This document shows, piece by piece, positions 9,217-35,069 of a stretch of DNA of 35,225 nucleotides. Source of the stretch: an uncultured Helicobacteraceae bacterium (GTDB lineage: Bacteria > Campylobacterota > Campylobacteria > Campylobacterales > Helicobacteraceae); the NCBI GenBank assembly GCA_947176375.1, contig CAMWQM010000018.1, forward strand, positions 1 through 35,225, written 5' to 3'. The translations under genes and the position numbers were made by a program. Below the pieces are notes generated by a model. That model was not told the origin of the DNA. It saw only the letters and a list, made by a program, of their open reading frames with translations, and did no database searches. Position 1 is the stretch's first letter; every line of letters begins with the position of its first letter.

Positions 9217-9264
9217 TTGAAATTATTTAAAACTTTCATAAATTCATCAAAAAAAGGGTAGTGG

Positions 9265-11472
9265 TTGAAGCAGTTATTGAAATTATTAATATTTCTATTC
9301 CTATTTACTTTTTTATACTCACAAGATAAACAACCTTTGGATGAAAATATCCTAGATGAAGCTTATATAGGTGAAAGTGTGGTTAGTGCTAGTATCTTGA
9401 GTGAAAATATTACGCAAAAAGGAAGCAATACAAGCATACTAAATCAAAAAGATATAAATCTACGCCCAAATGCAAAATTTAGCGATACATTAAGGGGACT
9501 AGAATCTATAAATATCCCATTAGGGCGTGGAATGGAGACTTTTGATACTATCACTATTAGAGGCATTGCAAATGGAACTAGCATTTTAGTAGATGGTGTT
9601 AGCTTAAATGATATGAATAATAATACCAAAATGCTAACTTCAATGACAGCGATGGATTTAGAGCAAGTAGAAGTCGTGCGTGGAGCATTTTCTAGTATTT
9701 ATGGAAGTGGTGCGATTGGTGGAGTTGTGAATTTTATCACTTCTATGCCACAGGAATTAGAAGCAAAAGCAAATCTAGGCTATGGAAACCCATTTGTCAA
9801 AAATGGCGCTCCACAGAATCTTATTCGTGGATATGTGAGTGTTGGAGACGCATTTTTTGATAAAACTTTTAGATTAAAGGCAAGCTATGGCTTTAATGTA
9901 TCAAAGGGCTATGCAGCTGATGATGCTTGGGTTAAAAATACAGAGTCTGGTATATCTGGCTACAAACCTAGCCTGTCTGCCAGAGGAGACGAGATATACA
10001 TCGTTGGCAATATGGGAAGACAAAGCTTTCAAAATCACGATGCAAGGATAAAGTCTCAGATTGATATTAATGATAATGGAATGCTTGATTTTGGCTTTAA
10101 CTACTCAAATTACAATTATAGGCATATAAATCAGCAAACAAATTTGCGTGATAGCGATGGAAATATGTATTGGGGAAATGATACTAACGGAAGTAGTGGC
10201 ACAATACCTTATGCTTTTGTCGGTGGAATGGGAAATGAAAGCTACCATCAATTTGTAGAATATATAAAATATAGGCATTTATTTGAAGATTCCACTTTGG
10301 AGCTAAATATTTCTCGCCTTGATGGAAGCAACACTTGGCTTTCTCCAAATAATGGTGCCTCTCCTTTTGGCGGTAGCGGAGTGAATGTAGACACAAAACA
10401 TCAAAAAACAGATTTGAATCTAATTTATAATATAGATTTTTATAATGAGGTTTTAGGACTGCTTATAGGAGCAGATTATAGACTAATGCAAATGGATATA
10501 AATGAATCTAATATCAATGATTGGCGTTATTTTAACAGCCAAAAAATTAGCTTAAAACAAAAAAGGGGAGGAAAAAATCAATTTGGTGGAATCTTTTTAG
10601 ACCTGAGTGCAAGACTACTAAATAAAAGTCTTATCCTATCATTTGGCGGGAGGACTACTTATTGGTGGGGTGGGGATTATTACAACACAAATATAAATGG
10701 AAGTGCAAATAATAACTCCAAATTTGCATTCTCACCAAAAGCAAGTATAATCTACAAACCGCTAGAAATAACAGCTTTAAAATTCTCCTTTGGACAAGCT
10801 TTTCGTGTGCCTACACTTAATCAAATGTTTGTAGAATATACTAGGAATGATGGGATTAGCTTTATTGGGAATCCAAATTTAAAGCCAGAAACCGCCACTA
10901 GCTTTGATATAGGAATCGAACAAGATATAGTATTTGAAAAATATCCATTAAAAGGCAAGTTAAAAGCGTATTATTTCTATACAGATTTACTAAACTTAAT
11001 TTATATAAACACACAGGGAAATAATCAATATCAGAATGCAGGGAAAGCTAGGATTCAAGGGCTGGAACTTTCTTACAATCAATCTCTCCCACTTGGATTT
11101 GGAATTAGGGCAAGTTACACTTACACAAATAGTAAAATTCTAAAAAATAATGTGAATCCTAGTAGCGTAGGAAAAAAGATTGAAGGCATAAGCGAACATA
11201 TGGGCTATGTAGAGCTAAACTATGAAAATTATGGCTTTTTTGGAAGTATTGGAGCAGAGTTTCAAAGCAAACCTTTTAGCCTAAACAACACTATTAGTAA
11301 GGTTTATGGTGCAAGTGATGAATATTATTTACTTGATTTAAAAATTGGCTATAATTTTACTCCAAATTTTGCCATAGATTTTAGCGCAACAAATATATTA
11401 AACTATAAATATTATAGATATTATAGAGCAAGTGGTGCGGCATTTTTCATAAATTTAAGTGCAAAAGTTTAA
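9265..11472 (+). CDS. TonB-dependent outer-membrane receptor
   Basis: A 735-aa outer-membrane receptor that imports a chelate using TonB-ExbBD energy. A signal peptide (about 1-19, ending FLYSQD) is followed by a TonB-box-like ESVVSAS, then a plug domain (about 55-170; ITIRGIANGTSILVDGVSL, VEVVRGAFSSIYGSGAIGGVVNF) and a 22-strand-type barrel. FRVPTLNQMF...NPNLKPE (about 513-542) is the FRAP/NPNL element common in haem, vitamin B12 and siderophore receptors. The start is TTG with AGGG about 7-8 nt upstream; no in-frame ATG serves. The last 14 nt overlap the upstream extension of the next frame but not its chosen start. With the three genes after it, it forms a full envelope-crossing uptake system; substrate is undetermined. 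Confidence 0.93.
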   Translation: MKQLLKLLIFLFLFTFLYSQDKQPLDENILDEAYIGESVVSASILSENITQKGSNTSILNQKDINLRPNAKFSDTLRGLESINIPLGRGMETFDTITIRGIANGTSILVDGVSLNDMNNNTKMLTSMTAMDLEQVEVVRGAFSSIYGSGAIGGVVNFITSMPQELEAKANLGYGNPFVKNGAPQNLIRGYVSVGDAFFDKTFRLKASYGFNVSKGYAADDAWVKNTESGISGYKPSLSARGDEIYIVGNMGRQSFQNHDARIKSQIDINDNGMLDFGFNYSNYNYRHINQQTNLRDSDGNMYWGNDTNGSSGTIPYAFVGGMGNESYHQFVEYIKYRHLFEDSTLELNISRLDGSNTWLSPNNGASPFGGSGVNVDTKHQKTDLNLIYNIDFYNEVLGLLIGADYRLMQMDINESNINDWRYFNSQKISLKQKRGGKNQFGGIFLDLSARLLNKSLILSFGGRTTYWWGGDYYNTNINGSANNNSKFAFSPKASIIYKPLEITALKFSFGQAFRVPTLNQMFVEYTRNDGISFIGNPNLKPETATSFDIGIEQDIVFEKYPLKGKLKAYYFYTDLLNLIYINTQGNNQYQNAGKARIQGLELSYNQSLPLGFGIRASYTYTNSKILKNNVNPSSVGKKIEGISEHMGYVELNYENYGFFGSIGAEFQSKPFSLNNTISKVYGASDEYYLLDLKIGYNFTPNFAIDFSATNILNYKYYRYYRASGAAFFINLSAKV

Positions 11473-28761: not shown

Positions 28762-28946
28762 AAAGTTTCCATTTAAAGATTCTACTTCAAAAACTCTATT
28801 TGATAAAAATATATTTTTTAGATTATAAATTTAATTATTTTTAATATTTAGATTCTAATTTTTATAGATTGTTTAATTGAAAAATATTGTTACACAATTC
28901 TTACACATATTTTAGCAAACCTTGCACATTATGGTATGAAATATTA

Positions 28947-28987
28947 AATTATTTAATCCTATACTAGCTTTAGTATAATTATTTAAT
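28947..28987. repeat. Direct repeats flanking a hairpin
   Basis: AATTATTTAAT occurs at 28947-28957 and 28977-28987. Between them TATACTA (28960-28966) and TAGTATA (28971-28977) form a 7-bp stem with a 4-nt loop. Could be an mtn 3' end structure, a regulator site or a footprint of a past insertion; no T-tract follows. Confidence 0.4.
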
Positions 28988-28994
28988 ATATTTT

Positions 28995-29276
28995 AATATT
29001 TCAGAAAATAGTGAGCTTGAATTTTTACTAAAAGAAAAGTCTTATATTGATGAAACATACACACAATAATTAATTTAAAAGATGAGATAATTACAACCAT
29101 AAGGCTATTTGATGAGCTTTATTATAATTCTTTATAGAGATTTGCTAGAAAAATCATGCGCACCAAAAAAACGATATTAGAGCTAAATATACAAAAATCT
29201 AAAAACAAAAGCAGAAGATATGTTTAAAGAACTATACACTGCCAAACAAAATAAAGACTTAGAACAAATAAAATAA
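28995..29276 (+). pseudogene. Decayed unidentified gene remnant
   Basis: Short coding-like pieces in alternating frames: NSELEFLLKEKSYIDETYTQ then stop at 29067-29069; in another frame LKDEIITTIRLFDELYYNSL, a TAG, then RFARKIMRTKKTILELNIQK; and back in the first frame KAEDMFKELYTAKQNKDLEQ, ending TAA at 29274-29276. Charged, helical character and similar spacing suggest one former protein broken by frameshifts and stops. The family is not recognised. Chance reading of AT-rich DNA cannot be excluded. Confidence 0.35.
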
Positions 29277-29593
29277 ATACTAAAATGCCCTTTTAGCCAA
29301 ACATCTTAAAATTAGTTTAAAATAGAATCTAACCTAATTTTTTATAAATTATTAATGATTTTATCGCAAACTTGCGTTTATAACTTTTAAAAATAGCAAT
29401 AAGTAAAAAACTAAAAGCAATCAAAGAAGCAATTTTATGGATAAATTTTAAAATGCTTTATAGCTTTTCTAGGCTATCCAACAAATTTATTTTAATGAGG
29501 TAAATTAGATTCTCTAATCTTTAAATACTTTTCTTATTTTTAAATTGATTTATGATAGACTTTTAGTCATTTCTTTAGGGAGGTTATCTAGGA

Positions 29594-30319
29594 ATGAAAG
29601 CTTACTTTTTTGCTACCTGTCTTGGCGGGGTAGCCTACTCAAATACTTGCATAAATGCCATAAAATTACTTCAAAAAGAAGGTGTAGAAATCATCTTTAA
29701 AAAAGACCAGACTTGTTGCGGACAACCTAGCTTTAACTCTGGTTACTATGATTATAGCCAACAAATCGCACTTCATAATATTAAATTATTTAATGAGCCT
29801 TATCCTGTCATTGTGCCATCAGGCTCGTGTGCGGGAGTTATGAAAGTGGACTATTTAGAGCTTTTTGCAGATAGTGGTGATTATGCAATGGTAAAGGAAT
29901 TTAGCTCTAGAGTGTATGAATTAAGCGATTTTTTACTAAAAGAATTAAAAGTCAATTATGAGGATAAAGGCGAGAAAGTAAAGGTTGCTTGGCATTCTAA
30001 CTGCCACGCTTTGAGAGTTGCAAAAAGTGTAGGATCTTCTAAAAGCCTAATTCGTCAGCTAAAAAATGTAGAGTTAATAGAACTGGAAAGAGAGGAGGAG
30101 TGCTGTGGATTTGGCGGAACATTCTCAATAAAAGAGCCAGAAATATCAAATGCAATGGTGCAAGATAAAATCAAAGATATACAAGATAGAAATGTAGAAT
30201 ACCTAGTATCAGGCGATGCAGGATGCTTGATGAATATTAGTGGTGCAATGCAGAAAAATAATGTAAATGTAAAACCCATTCATTTGTATGATTTCATAGC
30301 ACAAAGAATAAACCTCTAA
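29594..30319 (+). CDS. lutA: L-lactate oxidation protein LutA (CCG-domain)
   Basis: Part of the LutABC iron-sulphur complex that oxidises L-lactate to pyruvate and feeds electrons to the quinone pool. The 241-aa protein has two cysteine-rich CCG domains, with TCCGQPSFNSG (40-50) and ECCGFGGTFS (169-178) as the paired cluster/active-site motifs, and further cysteines at SGSCAG and SNCH. AGGA lies just before the ATG, with a stronger GGGAGG 12-15 nt upstream. 13 bp before lutB. The name reflects family; glycolate-type CCG proteins are similar, but the three-gene context points to LutABC. Confidence 0.94.
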   Translation: MKAYFFATCLGGVAYSNTCINAIKLLQKEGVEIIFKKDQTCCGQPSFNSGYYDYSQQIALHNIKLFNEPYPVIVPSGSCAGVMKVDYLELFADSGDYAMVKEFSSRVYELSDFLLKELKVNYEDKGEKVKVAWHSNCHALRVAKSVGSSKSLIRQLKNVELIELEREEECCGFGGTFSIKEPEISNAMVQDKIKDIQDRNVEYLVSGDAGCLMNISGAMQKNNVNVKPIHLYDFIAQRINL

Positions 30320-30332
30320 AAAGGAAATAGAT

Positions 30333-31787
30333 ATGAGCAATAGCAGTCAATTTCACTCTAGCAATGAGTATGAAAACATAGTAAATTCAAAATTAAATGA
30401 TGCACAATTAAGACAAAACCTTCAATCTGTAATGAAAACCCTAAAGCAAAACAGGAAAAATACCATTGCATCGCGTTATACAAAATGGGAAGAGTTACGA
30501 GAGCTTGGAAGAAAAGTTAAGCAAAATGCTCTCTCAAAACTTCCTAGCTTACTAGAAAAATTTGAACAAAATGCAATCAAAAATGGTTTTAAGATTCACT
30601 GGGCAAGAGATAGCAAAGAAGCAAATAAAATAATCCTCTCTTTGATGCAAAAAAACAGCTCAAATGTGATTTTAAAAGGTAAATCTATGGCGAGTGAGGA
30701 GATTCACCTAAATGCCTATTTGAAAGAAAATAATATAAATGCACTTGAGACAGATTTAGGTGAGTTAATAATCCAGCTAATTGATGAGCCACCTGTGCAT
30801 ATTGTCGCTCCTGCGATTCACAAAAATCGCTATGAGATTGGAAAAATTTTTAAGGATAAATTAAATGCGAAGCTAGAATCTGAACCAGAAAAGCTAAACG
30901 GAATCGCAAGAGAACATTTAAGAAAAGAATTTAAAAGCTTTAAAATTGGCTTATCAGGCGTAAATTTTGCAATAGCAAATGAGGGTGCTATATGGCTAAT
31001 TGAAAATGAAGGCAATGGTAGGATGAGCACCACTGCGTGTGATATTCACATAGCAATATGCGGGATTGAAAAAGTTGTTGAGAGTTTTGAAGATGCAAGT
31101 ATTTTAGATCTATTGCTTGTACCGAGTGCTACAGGTGCGAATATTAGCTGTTATAACAACATCATAGGTAGCCCTAGACAAAGCGATGAGTTAGATGGAC
31201 CAAAAGAAGTGCATATCATTATGCTTGATAATAATCGCTCTAGAATTCTAAGTGATTCACACTATTACCGCTCTTTAAGCTGTATTCGTTGTGGGACTTG
31301 CCTAAATCACTGCCCTGTATATGATAAAATCGGTGGGCATGCATATCTCTCCACATATCCTGGACCTATTGGTGAGGTTATTTCGCCACAAATTTTTGGA
31401 ATAGATAATTATGCTCCTATGCTAAATTTATGTTCGCTCTGCGGGCGTTGCTCAGAAGTCTGTCCTGTTAAGATTCCACTAGCAGAATTAATTAGAGATT
31501 TGCGTAGTGAAAAAGCAGGAGAAGGACGAGGTGGAATAGTAGGATATAGTGAAGTGCATAGAAACAAAACAGAGAAAAATAGCTTTGCAGTTTTTGCAAA
31601 TATCGCTACAAGTGGTGCTAAATGGCGTATGCTATTATGGCAAGTGCGAATCTTTGGCGGAATGGGAAAAATCTTTGGCAATCTTATTCCGGGATTAAAT
31701 CTCTGGCTAAAATATAGAAGCTATCCTAAACTTGATGCGAGTTTGCACTCTAGGGTAAAAGAATTAAAAGGAGTGATTTATGAGTAG
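30333..31787 (+). CDS. lutB: L-lactate oxidation iron-sulphur protein LutB
   Basis: Electron-transfer subunit of LutABC, 484 aa. An N-terminal LUD-type domain (about 70-305; GKSMASEEIHLN, ETDLGELIIQL, ANEGAIWLIENEGNGRM) is followed by two [4Fe-4S] motifs: Cys 317/320/323 with 327, and Cys 367/370/373 with 377. The C-terminal region continues with RSEKAGEGRGG and a hydrophobic tail. AAGGAAATAG precedes the ATG. Overlaps lutC by 8 bp. Confidence 0.95.
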   Translation: MSNSSQFHSSNEYENIVNSKLNDAQLRQNLQSVMKTLKQNRKNTIASRYTKWEELRELGRKVKQNALSKLPSLLEKFEQNAIKNGFKIHWARDSKEANKIILSLMQKNSSNVILKGKSMASEEIHLNAYLKENNINALETDLGELIIQLIDEPPVHIVAPAIHKNRYEIGKIFKDKLNAKLESEPEKLNGIAREHLRKEFKSFKIGLSGVNFAIANEGAIWLIENEGNGRMSTTACDIHIAICGIEKVVESFEDASILDLLLVPSATGANISCYNNIIGSPRQSDELDGPKEVHIIMLDNNRSRILSDSHYYRSLSCIRCGTCLNHCPVYDKIGGHAYLSTYPGPIGEVISPQIFGIDNYAPMLNLCSLCGRCSEVCPVKIPLAELIRDLRSEKAGEGRGGIVGYSEVHRNKTEKNSFAVFANIATSGAKWRMLLWQVRIFGGMGKIFGNLIPGLNLWLKYRSYPKLDASLHSRVKELKGVIYE

Positions 31788-32409
31788 AGAGGCAATTTTA
31801 TCAAATGTAAGAAATGCGCTAGAACAAAACAAACTTAACAATGCAAATAGAGACTACAAAGATTTAATAAAACATAGCAGCGATAATATTGTTCAAGAAT
31901 ATATAACAATGCAGACTGCAAACAAGGGCATTGTAGTCGAGAGTAAAGATATTTTAAACGACATAAAAGAAATTCTAACAAAACTGGAATCTAAAAAGAT
32001 TCTATACACTCTTGATATGGCAGACATAGCCAAAGATTTAGAATCTACGAAAGAATTTGACATTAAACCTTATGATAAAAGTGTAGATTCTATAAGAGAT
32101 GAGCTTTTTAATACAGATACTTCTATAATTAGAGCAAAGTGTGGAGTGGCTGATTTAGGCATATTTGGCGTTGTGTCTTCTAGTCTCCATCCTAGACTTG
32201 CTTCACTTATCACTAAAAATTGTATTATCATTTTGGATAAAAAAGATATAGTGCAAAGCCTGAATGATGGGATAAACAAGCTAAAAGGAAATGATAAATT
32301 ACCTAGCAACATAATTTTTATAGCAGGACCATCAAGGACAGCAGATATTGAGCTTAAAACGGTCTTTGGAGTTCATGGACCACAACAAACTTATATAATT
32401 TTGATATGA
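31780..32409 (+). CDS. lutC: L-lactate oxidation protein LutC (LUD domain)
   Basis: Small LUD-domain subunit of 209 aa. The C-terminal half holds the usual core: AKCGVADLGIFGVVSS, HPRLASLITKNCIIILDKKDIV and AGPSRTADIELKTVFGVHGP, the last being the diagnostic LutC segment. Its ATG has AAAGGAG upstream inside lutB, and its stop overlaps the yaaA start (ATGA). Confidence 0.94.
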   Translation: MSREAILSNVRNALEQNKLNNANRDYKDLIKHSSDNIVQEYITMQTANKGIVVESKDILNDIKEILTKLESKKILYTLDMADIAKDLESTKEFDIKPYDKSVDSIRDELFNTDTSIIRAKCGVADLGIFGVVSSSLHPRLASLITKNCIIILDKKDIVQSLNDGINKLKGNDKLPSNIIFIAGPSRTADIELKTVFGVHGPQQTYIILI

Positions 32410-33116
32410 AAATACTTTTTAGCCCTAGTGAGGAAAAGAATTTTATTTATAAAGAAAATTGCAATGAGCCTTTTTCTTTTTTACAAGACTTGCTCTTTGG
32501 TGCTAACGTGAGGGAGGATTTTGTAAAGAATTATTTGAAGTATCTAAAAGATTCCACCACAAATGAGCTTTCTAAGATTCTTGGTATGAAAAATATCTCA
32601 CTAGATAAATTAAGTGCCGCAAGCAACCTACACACTGCAAATACAATAGAATCTATTTTGCTTTATAATGGCGTAGCTTTTAAGGCACTTGATATTAGCA
32701 GTTTGCCAAAAGATTCGCTTAATTTTCTATTTGACAATGTCCTAATTTTTAGCAATCTTTTTGGTTGTATTCGTGCTAACGATAAGATTCCATACTATAA
32801 ACTAAAACAAGGAGAAACTTTCTTTAAAAATAGTATTTTTAGTCTATATGATAGATTTAAAGAACCGCTCTTTGAGTATCTCAAGGATTCTGATGTGCTA
32901 GATTTGAGAGCGGAATTTTATATCAAAGCTTTCGCTCTGCCCTATCCACACACCAAAGCGGAATTTTACAAAAATAATAAAAAAGTCTCTCATCAATCAA
33001 AGCATTATCGTGGATTATTACTTCGGAATCTTGCATTAAATAAAAAAGAGCCTTTCAAAATAAGAGATATTAAGCAAAATGGCTTTATTAAAATCATTCA
33101 ATATGAAGTGGATTAG
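32406..33116 (+). CDS. yaaA: YaaA-family peroxide-stress protein
   Basis: A 236-aa protein of the YaaA (DUF328) family, which in Escherichia coli lowers free iron and damage during peroxide stress; recent structures show a DNA-binding fold. The N-terminus ILFSPSEEKN, the middle ILLYNGVAFKALD and VLIFSNLFGCIRANDKIPYYKL, and the C-terminal SHQSKHYRGLLLR (HARG-like) match. Coupled to lutC by a 4-bp overlap. The association with lactate oxidation, a source of H2O2 in some enzymes, is an inference. Confidence 0.88.
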   Translation: MKILFSPSEEKNFIYKENCNEPFSFLQDLLFGANVREDFVKNYLKYLKDSTTNELSKILGMKNISLDKLSAASNLHTANTIESILLYNGVAFKALDISSLPKDSLNFLFDNVLIFSNLFGCIRANDKIPYYKLKQGETFFKNSIFSLYDRFKEPLFEYLKDSDVLDLRAEFYIKAFALPYPHTKAEFYKNNKKVSHQSKHYRGLLLRNLALNKKEPFKIRDIKQNGFIKIIQYEVD

Positions 33117-33147: not shown

Positions 33148-33153
33148 TATAAT
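33148..33153 (+). promoter_or_regulatory. Putative -10 element for the MshQ-like gene
   Basis: GATATTATAATTGC contains TATAAT at 33148-33153, 26 nt before the ATG at 33180, with AGGG between. It sits in the 63-bp gap after yaaA, so the gene can be transcribed on its own. Confidence 0.5.
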
Positions 33154-33179: not shown

Positions 33180-35069
33180 ATGAAAAAAATTTTATTTATC
33201 ATTTTATTTTATATATTTTCTAATGCAAATGATGTTGTGTTAAATCAAGCTCCGCTAATAGTTGAATTTGATGTTTTTAAAGAAGCAGAAAAAATCTGCA
33301 ATGGAAGTGATTATACAAAGCTTAATTGCCTAGTTAGTAATCTAAAACCTTATAGCAATAGAATCTACACAAAAAAAAGTGGCACAAATGGAAAAATTAG
33401 CGTGATTTTCTACGCACTCTCAAGTGATGGTAAAATCACATATCCACAAAATATTAGCTCTAAAACCTGCGAATTTATCGATACATTAGGAAAAAGATTC
33501 CACTCCAAACTTAATGGAAATGGCTTTAGCTATGTGCTAAATTATAACTTTAGCGCCTCATCATCGCTAAGCAAAGCTCAAATCTATTGTAAATTCACAG
33601 ATAAAGATAAAGTGATTTCTCAAACCACACAGCCAATTAGTGTAATTCCAAATGATTTTGATATGAAGCTAACGATAAAAACCGCTCAGGATTCGCTCTA
33701 CACTTTAAATACACAAGAGATTTTATCTCCAAATATTTCTCAAAGTGAAGCACAAAACTATCAAAATGTAAATAATGTAGATTTTGTTCTAAAGCCTCAA
33801 AACTATATAATAAATATCAATAATAACGCCATTGCAAGGACAATAAATGGTGAAATTGATAGAGGATTTAGTGATTCTCTAATTCCACTTTCAATTAGAT
33901 TTAGTAGAGATAATGGCTTGTGTAACCCTGTGGGTGAGAGCATAAATGGGAGATTTAGCTTTAAGAATGGAAAATTTGTTTATAACAATGTAAATATCAA
34001 TTTTCTTGATGTCGCAAGCGGTGAGCTAGAAATAATGCTAGAACATAGTCTAGATAAAGATGATAGGGAAAATGGCAAATGTCTCCTAGCTCAACCACAA
34101 ACTAAAGATATAACAAATGCAGGAAAGATTCCGTGTCAAAAGCCTATAACAATCAAAAAAAGAATTGAAATTGTGCCTTACTCATTCTTTGTTACTTTGG
34201 AAAATAATGGCAGACAAATTTATTACAATCAGCACACTTTTATTCCTGCTATTTTACACCTACCAACTGCAAAACTTCAATTTAGTGCGATAAATAATAG
34301 AAACCAAATACTAAAAAACTTTACAAAAGACTGTTATGCGAGAGATTTAAGCATTAAGCTAGAGGATAATAAAAATAATCTTGTTTTTATTAATGAAAAT
34401 ATTCCAGATTCGATCTTACCAAAAGATACTTTTCTACAAGATTCTAAATCACAAATTATCCGCAAACTCTCAAGTAGTGGGATAAATGATAGGGATTTAA
34501 CACCACTTGACTTATTCAATTCTAATGTGATAAATCTAAATGATACATTTTTAAAAATAGGATTCCCAAATAATGATGTAAAATATCCTGTCTATCAAAT
34601 CAAACCAAAAATTACTAACGATTGGCGTATCGCCCTAATGCGTGGCAGAATCTCACTTATAAAAAATACAAATGAAAGTGCTGCATTGGTGGCAAATCCA
34701 AAGATTCAATATGAAATTTTCTGCAAAAGCCCAACTTGCAAGATAGTGGATATTGAGAGCGTTTTATCTCCATATACTAGACTGCCAAAATCTAATTTTA
34801 ATGATTGGTTTATAAACACCGCTCATCCCACAAATCTAAAGGTTTTGGAAAATAATTTAGCCCTGCCCAGTGAAATAAGCATATATTCAATTGGTAATAT
34901 AGTAAATGGGATCCAAACTCTAGCCCTACAATCTAGCCAAAAAGGCAATTTTGATATAAAAATAAAGCAAGGACTTGGAGCAGAGGACTTCGCCTTATTT
35001 TTATATTTTGCACCCAACTATGCAAATATCCGCGAAGATCTAGGCATAAGCACTAAAATTAGCTTTTAA
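33180..35069 (+). CDS. Secreted MshQ-like (DUF6701-type) protein
   Basis: A 629-aa protein with a clean signal peptide (about 1-17) and no other membrane span, so exported. Most of it has beta-rich, Asn/Lys/Ser-rich composition and several Cys. The order of elements from about 255 onward recalls the C-terminal region of MshQ: GRFSFKNGKFVYNNVNINF then ASGELEIML (the 'nG....v.ysdvGei.l' part), RIEIVPYSFFVTL (the 'RFvPdhF.v' part), FIPAILHLPTAKLQFSAINN then ILKNFTKDCYARDLSI (the 'l.A.n..g..t.Ny.g.fa' part) and WRIALMRGRISLIKNTNES then IQYEIFCKSPTC (the 'fGRl.l.n..Gse...qYw' part). This is pattern resemblance from memory. MshQ belongs to mannose-sensitive-haemagglutinin pilus loci; no pilin gene is in the window. 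AGGG 7-9 nt before ATG. Function unknown. Confidence 0.6.
   Translation: MKKILFIILFYIFSNANDVVLNQAPLIVEFDVFKEAEKICNGSDYTKLNCLVSNLKPYSNRIYTKKSGTNGKISVIFYALSSDGKITYPQNISSKTCEFIDTLGKRFHSKLNGNGFSYVLNYNFSASSSLSKAQIYCKFTDKDKVISQTTQPISVIPNDFDMKLTIKTAQDSLYTLNTQEILSPNISQSEAQNYQNVNNVDFVLKPQNYIININNNAIARTINGEIDRGFSDSLIPLSIRFSRDNGLCNPVGESINGRFSFKNGKFVYNNVNINFLDVASGELEIMLEHSLDKDDRENGKCLLAQPQTKDITNAGKIPCQKPITIKKRIEIVPYSFFVTLENNGRQIYYNQHTFIPAILHLPTAKLQFSAINNRNQILKNFTKDCYARDLSIKLEDNKNNLVFINENIPDSILPKDTFLQDSKSQIIRKLSSSGINDRDLTPLDLFNSNVINLNDTFLKIGFPNNDVKYPVYQIKPKITNDWRIALMRGRISLIKNTNESAALVANPKIQYEIFCKSPTCKIVDIESVLSPYTRLPKSNFNDWFINTAHPTNLKVLENNLALPSEISIYSIGNIVNGIQTLALQSSQKGNFDIKIKQGLGAEDFALFLYFAPNYANIREDLGISTKISF

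What the first reader, a model, noticed from the sequence alone, without database searches (positions are those of the whole stretch)
33180..35069. Secreted MshQ-like protein without a pilus locus
The C-terminal two-thirds follow the element order of MshQ/DUF6701 proteins, usually found with MSHA-type pili of gammaproteobacteria. Here it stands alone with its own promoter next to a lactate-oxidation operon. In a Helicobacter this would point to an uncharacterised surface or pseudopilus system encoded elsewhere or just past the right edge.
Basis: partly seen in the sequence, partly recalled or inferred. Interest (0 to 1): 0.6.

Follow-up and report, generated by a model that had tools for sequence, protein, structure and literature searches.

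The report
Displaced MshQ-like pilus-tip protein, three copies
This gene makes an exported protein that is a distant, shortened cousin of MshQ, the suspected sticky tip of one kind of bacterial type IV pilus; in this Helicobacter relative the gene has moved away from its usual place beside the pilin genes and exists in three versions, while the pilus machinery it most likely serves lies elsewhere in the same genome.

Summary
The ORF (33180-35069, 629 aa) is a real, conserved gene under purifying selection. No Pfam or NCBIfam model recognises it. Profile-profile comparison nevertheless ties its residues ~154-613 to DUF6701 (MshQ-type) proteins (98% probability; controls below 0.5%). Across Campylobacterota, the proteins its profile finds are mostly large exported proteins encoded directly upstream of two prepilins and a PilX-like ORF, the expected company of MshQ.

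Contig C9 of the same genome carries an MSHA-type pilus locus: MshL secretin above its curated cut-off, an ATPase with an MshE-type c-di-GMP domain, PilC, PilT and two minor prepilins. 'Stands alone with its own promoter' is not supported: the gene ends a lutABC-yaaA run conserved in its genus and overlaps yaaA in two relatives. The window is a whole contig, so nothing lies past the right edge.

New here: the gene is detached from the pilin operon, lacks the extra N-terminal part of the long forms, and is one of three genus paralogues. In passing: genus members carry about ten dispersed full-length pilin genes with constant ends and a hypervariable middle.

The parts
33180..35069 (+). MshQ-like exported protein, 629 aa (the finding)
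   Evidence: ORF; orthologues; alignment; selection
33180..33227 (+). predicted Sec signal peptide MKKILFIILFYIFSNA (no lipobox, no prepilin motif)
   Evidence: sequence; inference, no signal-peptide program run
33228..33638 (+). N-terminal region (residues 17-153), Ig/MG-like beta domain in the model; similar to the genus paralogues, outside the strongest DUF6701-like match
   Evidence: AF2 model; VIA-align Z 8.2 over 95 residues to a TEP1 macroglobulin domain; alignments
33639..35018 (+). DUF6701/MshQ-like region (residues ~154-613)
   Evidence: hhalign A2 against pilin-operon proteins 98.4%; against formal DUF6701 proteins 97.8%
34317..34346 (+). family signature NFTKDCYARD (N-[FY]-x3-C-x-A-K-D), residues 380-389
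   Evidence: aligned columns, invariant N380, nearly invariant C385, coordinates
34641..34652 (+). family signature RGRI ([YR]GR), residues 488-491
34710..34739 (+). family signature YEIFCKSPTC (YExYCxxC), residues 511-520
34803..34829 (+). family signature DWFINTAHP (WYxNxxH), residues 542-550
   Evidence: nearly invariant W543, H549
32406..33116 (+). yaaA (H2O2_YaaD, PF03883), immediate upstream neighbour kept in all orthologous loci
29594..32409 (+). lutA-lutB-lutC lactate-utilisation genes, upstream part of the same gene run
33148..33153 (+). TATAAT hexamer in the yaaA-ORF gap; possible -10 element, not above chance
   Evidence: sequence; promoter scan reports no site here

Best explanation
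The gene encodes a divergent, short MshQ-type protein. It is most likely exported by Sec, folds in the periplasm into a chain of immunoglobulin-like beta domains, and works with the MSHA-type type IV pilus encoded on contig C9 of the same genome. By analogy with MshQ it would be carried out through the MshL secretin on, or together with, the minor-pilin complex and act as the adhesive or priming tip component of the pilus. SHOWN by computation: exported-looking, conserved gene; homology to DUF6701/MshQ-type proteins; usual genomic company of that family in Campylobacterota; presence of the pilus machinery in the same genome; two further paralogues. INFERRED: physical association with the minor pilins, secretion through MshL, adhesive function. 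The lut-yaaA neighbourhood is probably incidental, a landing site that supplies transcription.
For: (1) hhalign of the orthologue-only profile A2 against pilin-operon proteins: 98.4%, E 4e-15; against orphan DUF6701-type proteins 97.9%; reversed controls 0.4% or less. Against formal DUF6701 proteins only: 97.8%, stable at 97.5-98.3% on leave-one-out; five unrelated families 0.2% or less. (2) Profile A1 found 22 Campylobacterota genomes outside the genus; in 17 the hit ORF is directly followed by two prepilin-like ORFs and usually a PilX-like one, and in one more prepilins are a few kb away. N_methyl was confirmed on several of these prepilins. (3) DUF6701 is the only Pfam family that recognises any member of the 33-sequence alignment (8 of 33, best E 1.1e-23). 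(4) Own genome: MshL secretin TIGR02519 at 274 bits against a 250 cut-off, MshE-type c-di-GMP domain NF053729 at 51.8 against 38, PilT family, PilC/GspF-like protein, two prepilins with weak N_methyl matches; prepilin peptidase on C7. (5) Survey: 138 of 298 Campylobacterota genomes carry the family, and 137 of these carry an MshL-like secretin (Fisher p 6e-7 without phylogenetic correction). (6) V. cholerae MshQ is called a putative MSHA adhesin; its loss lowers surface MSHA without blocking retraction (PMC7096442); swapping mshQ between V. fischeri strains changes host colonisation (PMC4094467).
Against: The window protein itself reaches no Pfam or NCBIfam model. It is not beside pilin genes, and no experiment links it to the pilus. 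Many Helicobacteraceae with an MshL-like secretin have no member of this family, so the pilus can work without it. Structural matches are generic Ig-like and macroglobulin folds. The MshL association partly reflects how widespread MshL is (271 of 298).
Confidence: 0.6

Rival explanations
1. It is an outer-surface or periplasmic Ig-like adhesin that descends from MshQ but no longer works with the pilus; after leaving the pilin operon it serves another surface role under lut-yaaA transcription.
For: Detached from the pilin operon, triplicated and sitting in a metabolic gene run; structural resemblance to Ig-like surface proteins such as FdeC and PrgB; much shorter than the operon forms (about 800-1590 aa).
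Against: Found only in a genus that keeps the full MSHA-type machinery; nearly every genome with the family has an MshL-like secretin (137 of 138). No outer-membrane anchor or lipobox seen in the sequence.
Confidence: 0.22
2. It belongs to a DNA-uptake or type-II-secretion-like pseudopilus, not to an adhesive pilus; the protein would be a tip or cargo factor of a competence machine.
For: Minor-pilin/PilX-like/secretin cassettes are shared by T2SS, competence pseudopili and T4P (general knowledge); the best model by E-value for the C9 assembly ATPase is GspE, below its cut-off.
Against: MshL above its own curated cut-off, MshE-type c-di-GMP domain above cut-off, PilT-family retraction ATPase next to the minor pilins, and many full-length pilin genes in the genus favour a true retractable pilus.
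Confidence: 0.13
3. The similarity is chance convergence of beta-rich, cysteine-containing secreted proteins; the protein is unrelated to MshQ.
For: No direct Pfam hit; pairwise identity to proteins outside the genus only 14-19%.
Against: Controls below 0.5% against 98%; shared ordered signatures N[FY]x3CxAKD, [YR]GR, YExYC, WYxNxxH; A1 finds pilin-adjacent ORFs in 17 of 22 outside genomes, which sequence composition alone would not produce.
Confidence: 0.03
4. A decaying relic of a lost operon gene.
For: Shortened and displaced relative to the operon forms.
Against: Intact and retained in all four genus genomes of about 99% completeness, pN far below pS, three paralogous lineages kept.
Confidence: 0.02

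Closest known systems
MshQ of the MSHA type IV pilus (Vibrio, Aeromonas, Shewanella); Pfam DUF6701, PF20419
   Same: Exported beta-rich protein of unknown biochemical function; homologous C-terminal region by profile-profile comparison; occurs in genomes with MshL, MshE-type ATPase, PilC and PilT
   Different: Below Pfam detection; 629 aa; not next to the minor-pilin genes; three paralogues in the genus; sits after lutABC-yaaA; gammaproteobacterial sequences were not compared directly here
Large DUF6701-type proteins upstream of prepilin-prepilin-PilX genes in Campylobacterota (e.g. L058, L062, L067)
   Same: Shared signature positions and order; found by the genus profile
   Different: About 800-1590 aa with extra N-terminal regions, encoded in the pilin operon; many end in an R-x-x-W type tail that the window protein lacks
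PilY1/PilC tip proteins of canonical type IVa pili (PF05567)
   Same: Same supposed role at the pilus tip (from general knowledge)
   Different: No PF05567 match found in this genome, but the search rang in no control genome, so absence is not shown

Membership tests
DUF6701 (PF20419) | HMMER match above Pfam's 27-bit gathering score | tested here: not met
   0 families at E<=10 for the window protein; 0 at E<=0.001
DUF6701 (PF20419) | Homology to formally recognised DUF6701 proteins over the domain | tested here: met
   hhalign 97.8%, leave-one-out 97.5-98.3%, controls 0.2% or less
MshQ (MSHA pilus component) | Encoded next to MSHA minor pilin genes | tested here: not met
   Neighbours are yaaA and lutABC; the minor-pilin operon on C9 has no such gene beside it
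MshQ (MSHA pilus component) | Genome encodes an MSHA-type pilus (MshL, MshE-like ATPase, MshG/PilC, minor pilins, prepilin peptidase) | tested here: met
   TIGR02519 274 bits over cut-off, NF053729 over cut-off; PF00482, PF07963, PF00437, PF01478 hits
MshQ (MSHA pilus component) | Additional N-terminal region before the DUF6701 part, as in the long Campylobacterota forms | tested here: not met
   629 aa against about 800-1590 aa; only ~150 residues precede the DUF6701-like part
MshQ (MSHA pilus component) | Sec-exported | tested here: inconclusive
   Signal-peptide-like N-terminus visible; no predictor run
MshQ (MSHA pilus component) | Affects surface pilus amount or adhesion | not testable with these tools
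   needs a mutant
PilY1/PilC | C-terminal beta-propeller PF05567 | tested here: not met
   no Pfam match in this protein
Prepilin / pseudopilin | N-terminal prepilin peptidase motif and hydrophobic helix | tested here: not met
   no G/A-[F/M]-x3-E motif at the N-terminus

The most novel reading that the evidence does not exclude
The genus runs a combinatorial, variable pilus: three interchangeable MshQ-like tip proteins, each in a different transcriptional context (this one coupled to the lactate-utilisation genes), together with about ten dispersed full-length pilin genes with constant ends and hypervariable centres, giving a switchable adhesive surface in a Helicobacteraceae lineage.
Probability: 0.22. 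Interest if true: 0.72.

Novelty: new variant of a known kind. Interest (0 to 1): 0.45.

Why it matters
MshQ is among the least understood parts of MSHA-type pili: one paper lists it with MshM and MshF as components of unknown function (PMC9815625), and no paper in the held library mentions DUF6701. Showing that a large, poorly annotated family of MshQ-like proteins occurs across Campylobacterota (138 of 298 genomes sampled), mostly beside minor pilins where inspected, but displaced and triplicated in one Helicobacteraceae genus, gives a concrete candidate for the pilus tip in a group where surface pili are little studied. It also shows that family models miss divergent members.

Tried and rejected
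Direct HMMER scans (Pfam, NCBIfam): no hit, hence profile-profile work. The genome-contig scan with the single protein found only one relative, contig CALUUD010000002.1, whose length equals that of G004:C2. Trimmed-fragment Pfam failed on a frame error and was replaced. Pfam scan of the full-length ORF in L055 gave no DUF6701 hit although the genome search gave 66 bits for a piece of it; the discrepancy was left unresolved, and leave-one-out without L055 does not change the result. PDB fold searches gave only generic Ig-like and macroglobulin matches, Z about 8 or less; no PDB sequence relative. PilY1 search uninformative, as no control rang. A link between lactate oxidation and the pilus was considered and set aside: nothing beyond adjacency supports it.

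Full report
WHAT IS THERE. The window is the whole contig G000:C18 of a 1.8-Mb, 37-contig genome. At 33180-35069 lies an intact 629-aa ORF that starts with a hydrophobic, signal-peptide-like segment. It follows lutA, lutB, lutC (LUD and CCG domains) and yaaA (PF03883) on the same strand. Three of the four other genomes held for this genus have an orthologue (64-69% identity); the fourth is only 56% complete. In each the gene directly follows yaaA; in two the coding sequences overlap and in the third the gap is about 24-36 nt. The promoter scan gives chance-level hits and none in the gap. The gene is therefore better described as the distal member of a lut-yaaA run than as standing alone with its own promoter, although a TATAAT at 33148-33153 leaves a separate start possible. 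Codon-position bias and pN far below pS show that it is a selected protein gene.

IS IT MshQ-LIKE? No Pfam or NCBIfam model hits it. The orthologue-only profile A2 (4 sequences) was compared with two alignments of large Campylobacterota proteins: 98.4% probability against proteins encoded beside prepilins and 97.9% against orphan DUF6701-type proteins; reversed versions gave 0.4% or less. Against only proteins with a formal DUF6701 match in the genome search it gave 97.8%, stable on leave-one-out, while five unrelated families gave 0.2% or less. In the 33-sequence alignment A4 the shared ordered signatures are N[FY]x3CxAKD, [YR]GR, YExYC(xxC) and WYxNxxH. DUF6701 is the only Pfam family that recognises any of the 33 members (8 of 33).

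GENOMIC COMPANY. Profile A1 (4 orthologues plus 2 paralogues) over 298 Campylobacterota genomes hits 22 outside the genus. Reading those loci, in 17 the hit ORF (about 800-1450 aa; one is cut by a contig end) is immediately followed by two prepilin-like ORFs and usually a third, PilX-like one; in one more, prepilins lie a few kb away. Several of the prepilins carry the N_methyl motif by Pfam. In some loci the run continues into further pilus genes (L064, L076, L078). This is the company expected of MshQ.

THE SYSTEM ELSEWHERE. The same genome carries on contig C9 (locus L155) a PilT-family ATPase, a PilX-like ORF and two minor prepilins on one strand and, divergently, three unassigned ORFs, an MshL secretin (TIGR02519, 274 bits, cut-off 250), a TPR protein, an ATPase with an MshE-type c-di-GMP domain (NF053729, 51.8 bits, cut-off 38) and a PilC-like protein. 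A prepilin peptidase is on C7. No DUF6701-type gene lies beside the C9 minor pilins, and the corresponding minor-pilin loci of three genus members and of the g13 relative G120 look the same in this respect.

PARALOGUES AND TREE. The window's genome has two more family members: C8 (858 aa, locus L053) and C1 (1078 aa, locus L170). None of the genus paralogue loci inspected lies directly beside pilin genes. In a maximum-likelihood tree the genus copies form one fully supported clade with three fully supported subclades, so the triplication predates the genus members seen here. Within the family Helicobacteraceae the survey finds this protein family only in this genus and g13, although most other genera have an MshL-like secretin.

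STRUCTURE. AlphaFold2 on A4 gives mean pLDDT 82.3 and pTM 0.74, a chain of mostly beta domains. Matches in the PDB are generic: macroglobulin domains of TEP and complement proteins, Ig-like adhesin domains (FdeC, PrgB, RTX adhesin), with Z around 8 or below. This fits an extended adhesin but proves nothing.

HOW IT PROBABLY WORKS. V. cholerae MshQ is described as a putative adhesin; its deletion lowers surface MSHA but does not block retraction (PMC7096442). Swapping mshQ between V. fischeri strains affects host colonisation (PMC4094467). MshQ is listed among MSHA components of unknown function (PMC9815625). By analogy, the protein would be exported by Sec, assemble with the minor pilins and reach the surface through MshL as a tip component. 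Homology and presence of the machinery are shown by computation; the export signal is read from the sequence; assembly, transport through MshL and adhesion are inferred.

CO-OCCURRENCE. 138 of 298 genomes carry the family and 137 of them an MshL-like secretin (the exception is G219); among the 160 without the family, 134 have one (Fisher p 6e-7). The test ignores relatedness and MshL is common, so it is supporting evidence only. MSHA-type genes in Campylobacter were annotated before (C. ureolyticus MshL and MshM, PMC3758288).

LIMITS. Gammaproteobacterial MshQ sequences were not compared directly; the link runs through Campylobacterota proteins that meet the DUF6701 cut-off. The PilY1 search is uninformative.

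Noticed in passing
L171-L188 (genomes G004 and G002); G000 contig ends C22:22134, C19:194, C27:202: Genus members carry about ten dispersed full-length pilin genes (mostly 170-190 aa) whose N-terminal ~90 aa (93-95% mean identity) and last ~25 aa (87-93%) are nearly constant while the middle is hypervariable (31-46% mean identity, range 17-100%), with similar upstream regions. It looks like a pilin repertoire shaped by recombination; the window's own assembly appears to break at these repeats. No paper in the held library combines pilin, antigenic variation and Helicobacteraceae.
   Followed up: partly
L055 and L167 (genome G120): A g13 relative of 2.1 Mb shows the same uncoupling: minor pilins, PilT and MshL-type locus in one place, the DUF6701-type protein (1316 aa) more than 1 Mb away.
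   Followed up: partly
L056:3561-13623: Genome G149 has three DUF6701-type genes in tandem on one strand with no prepilins beside them.
   Followed up: no
L157:106-5047 and 9242-11396: A Cas9-like ORF of 1096 aa with possible cas1 and cas2 downstream lies a few kb from a pilin gene and a 530-aa ORF matching the T2SSE/PilT ATPase family in the window's own genome (annotation of the cas genes by eye only).
   Followed up: no
window 28762-29593: About 830 bp without a long ORF ahead of lutA, possibly holding remains of a decayed gene.
   Followed up: no
window 35040-35069: Many operon-type relatives end in an R-x-x-W or VRLLR-like tail; the genus proteins end differently (window STKISF, C8 type RSGGRIGGF), so the end motif has changed in this lineage.
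   Followed up: no
genome G219: The only genome of 138 with the MshQ-like family but no MshL-like secretin hit.
   Followed up: no
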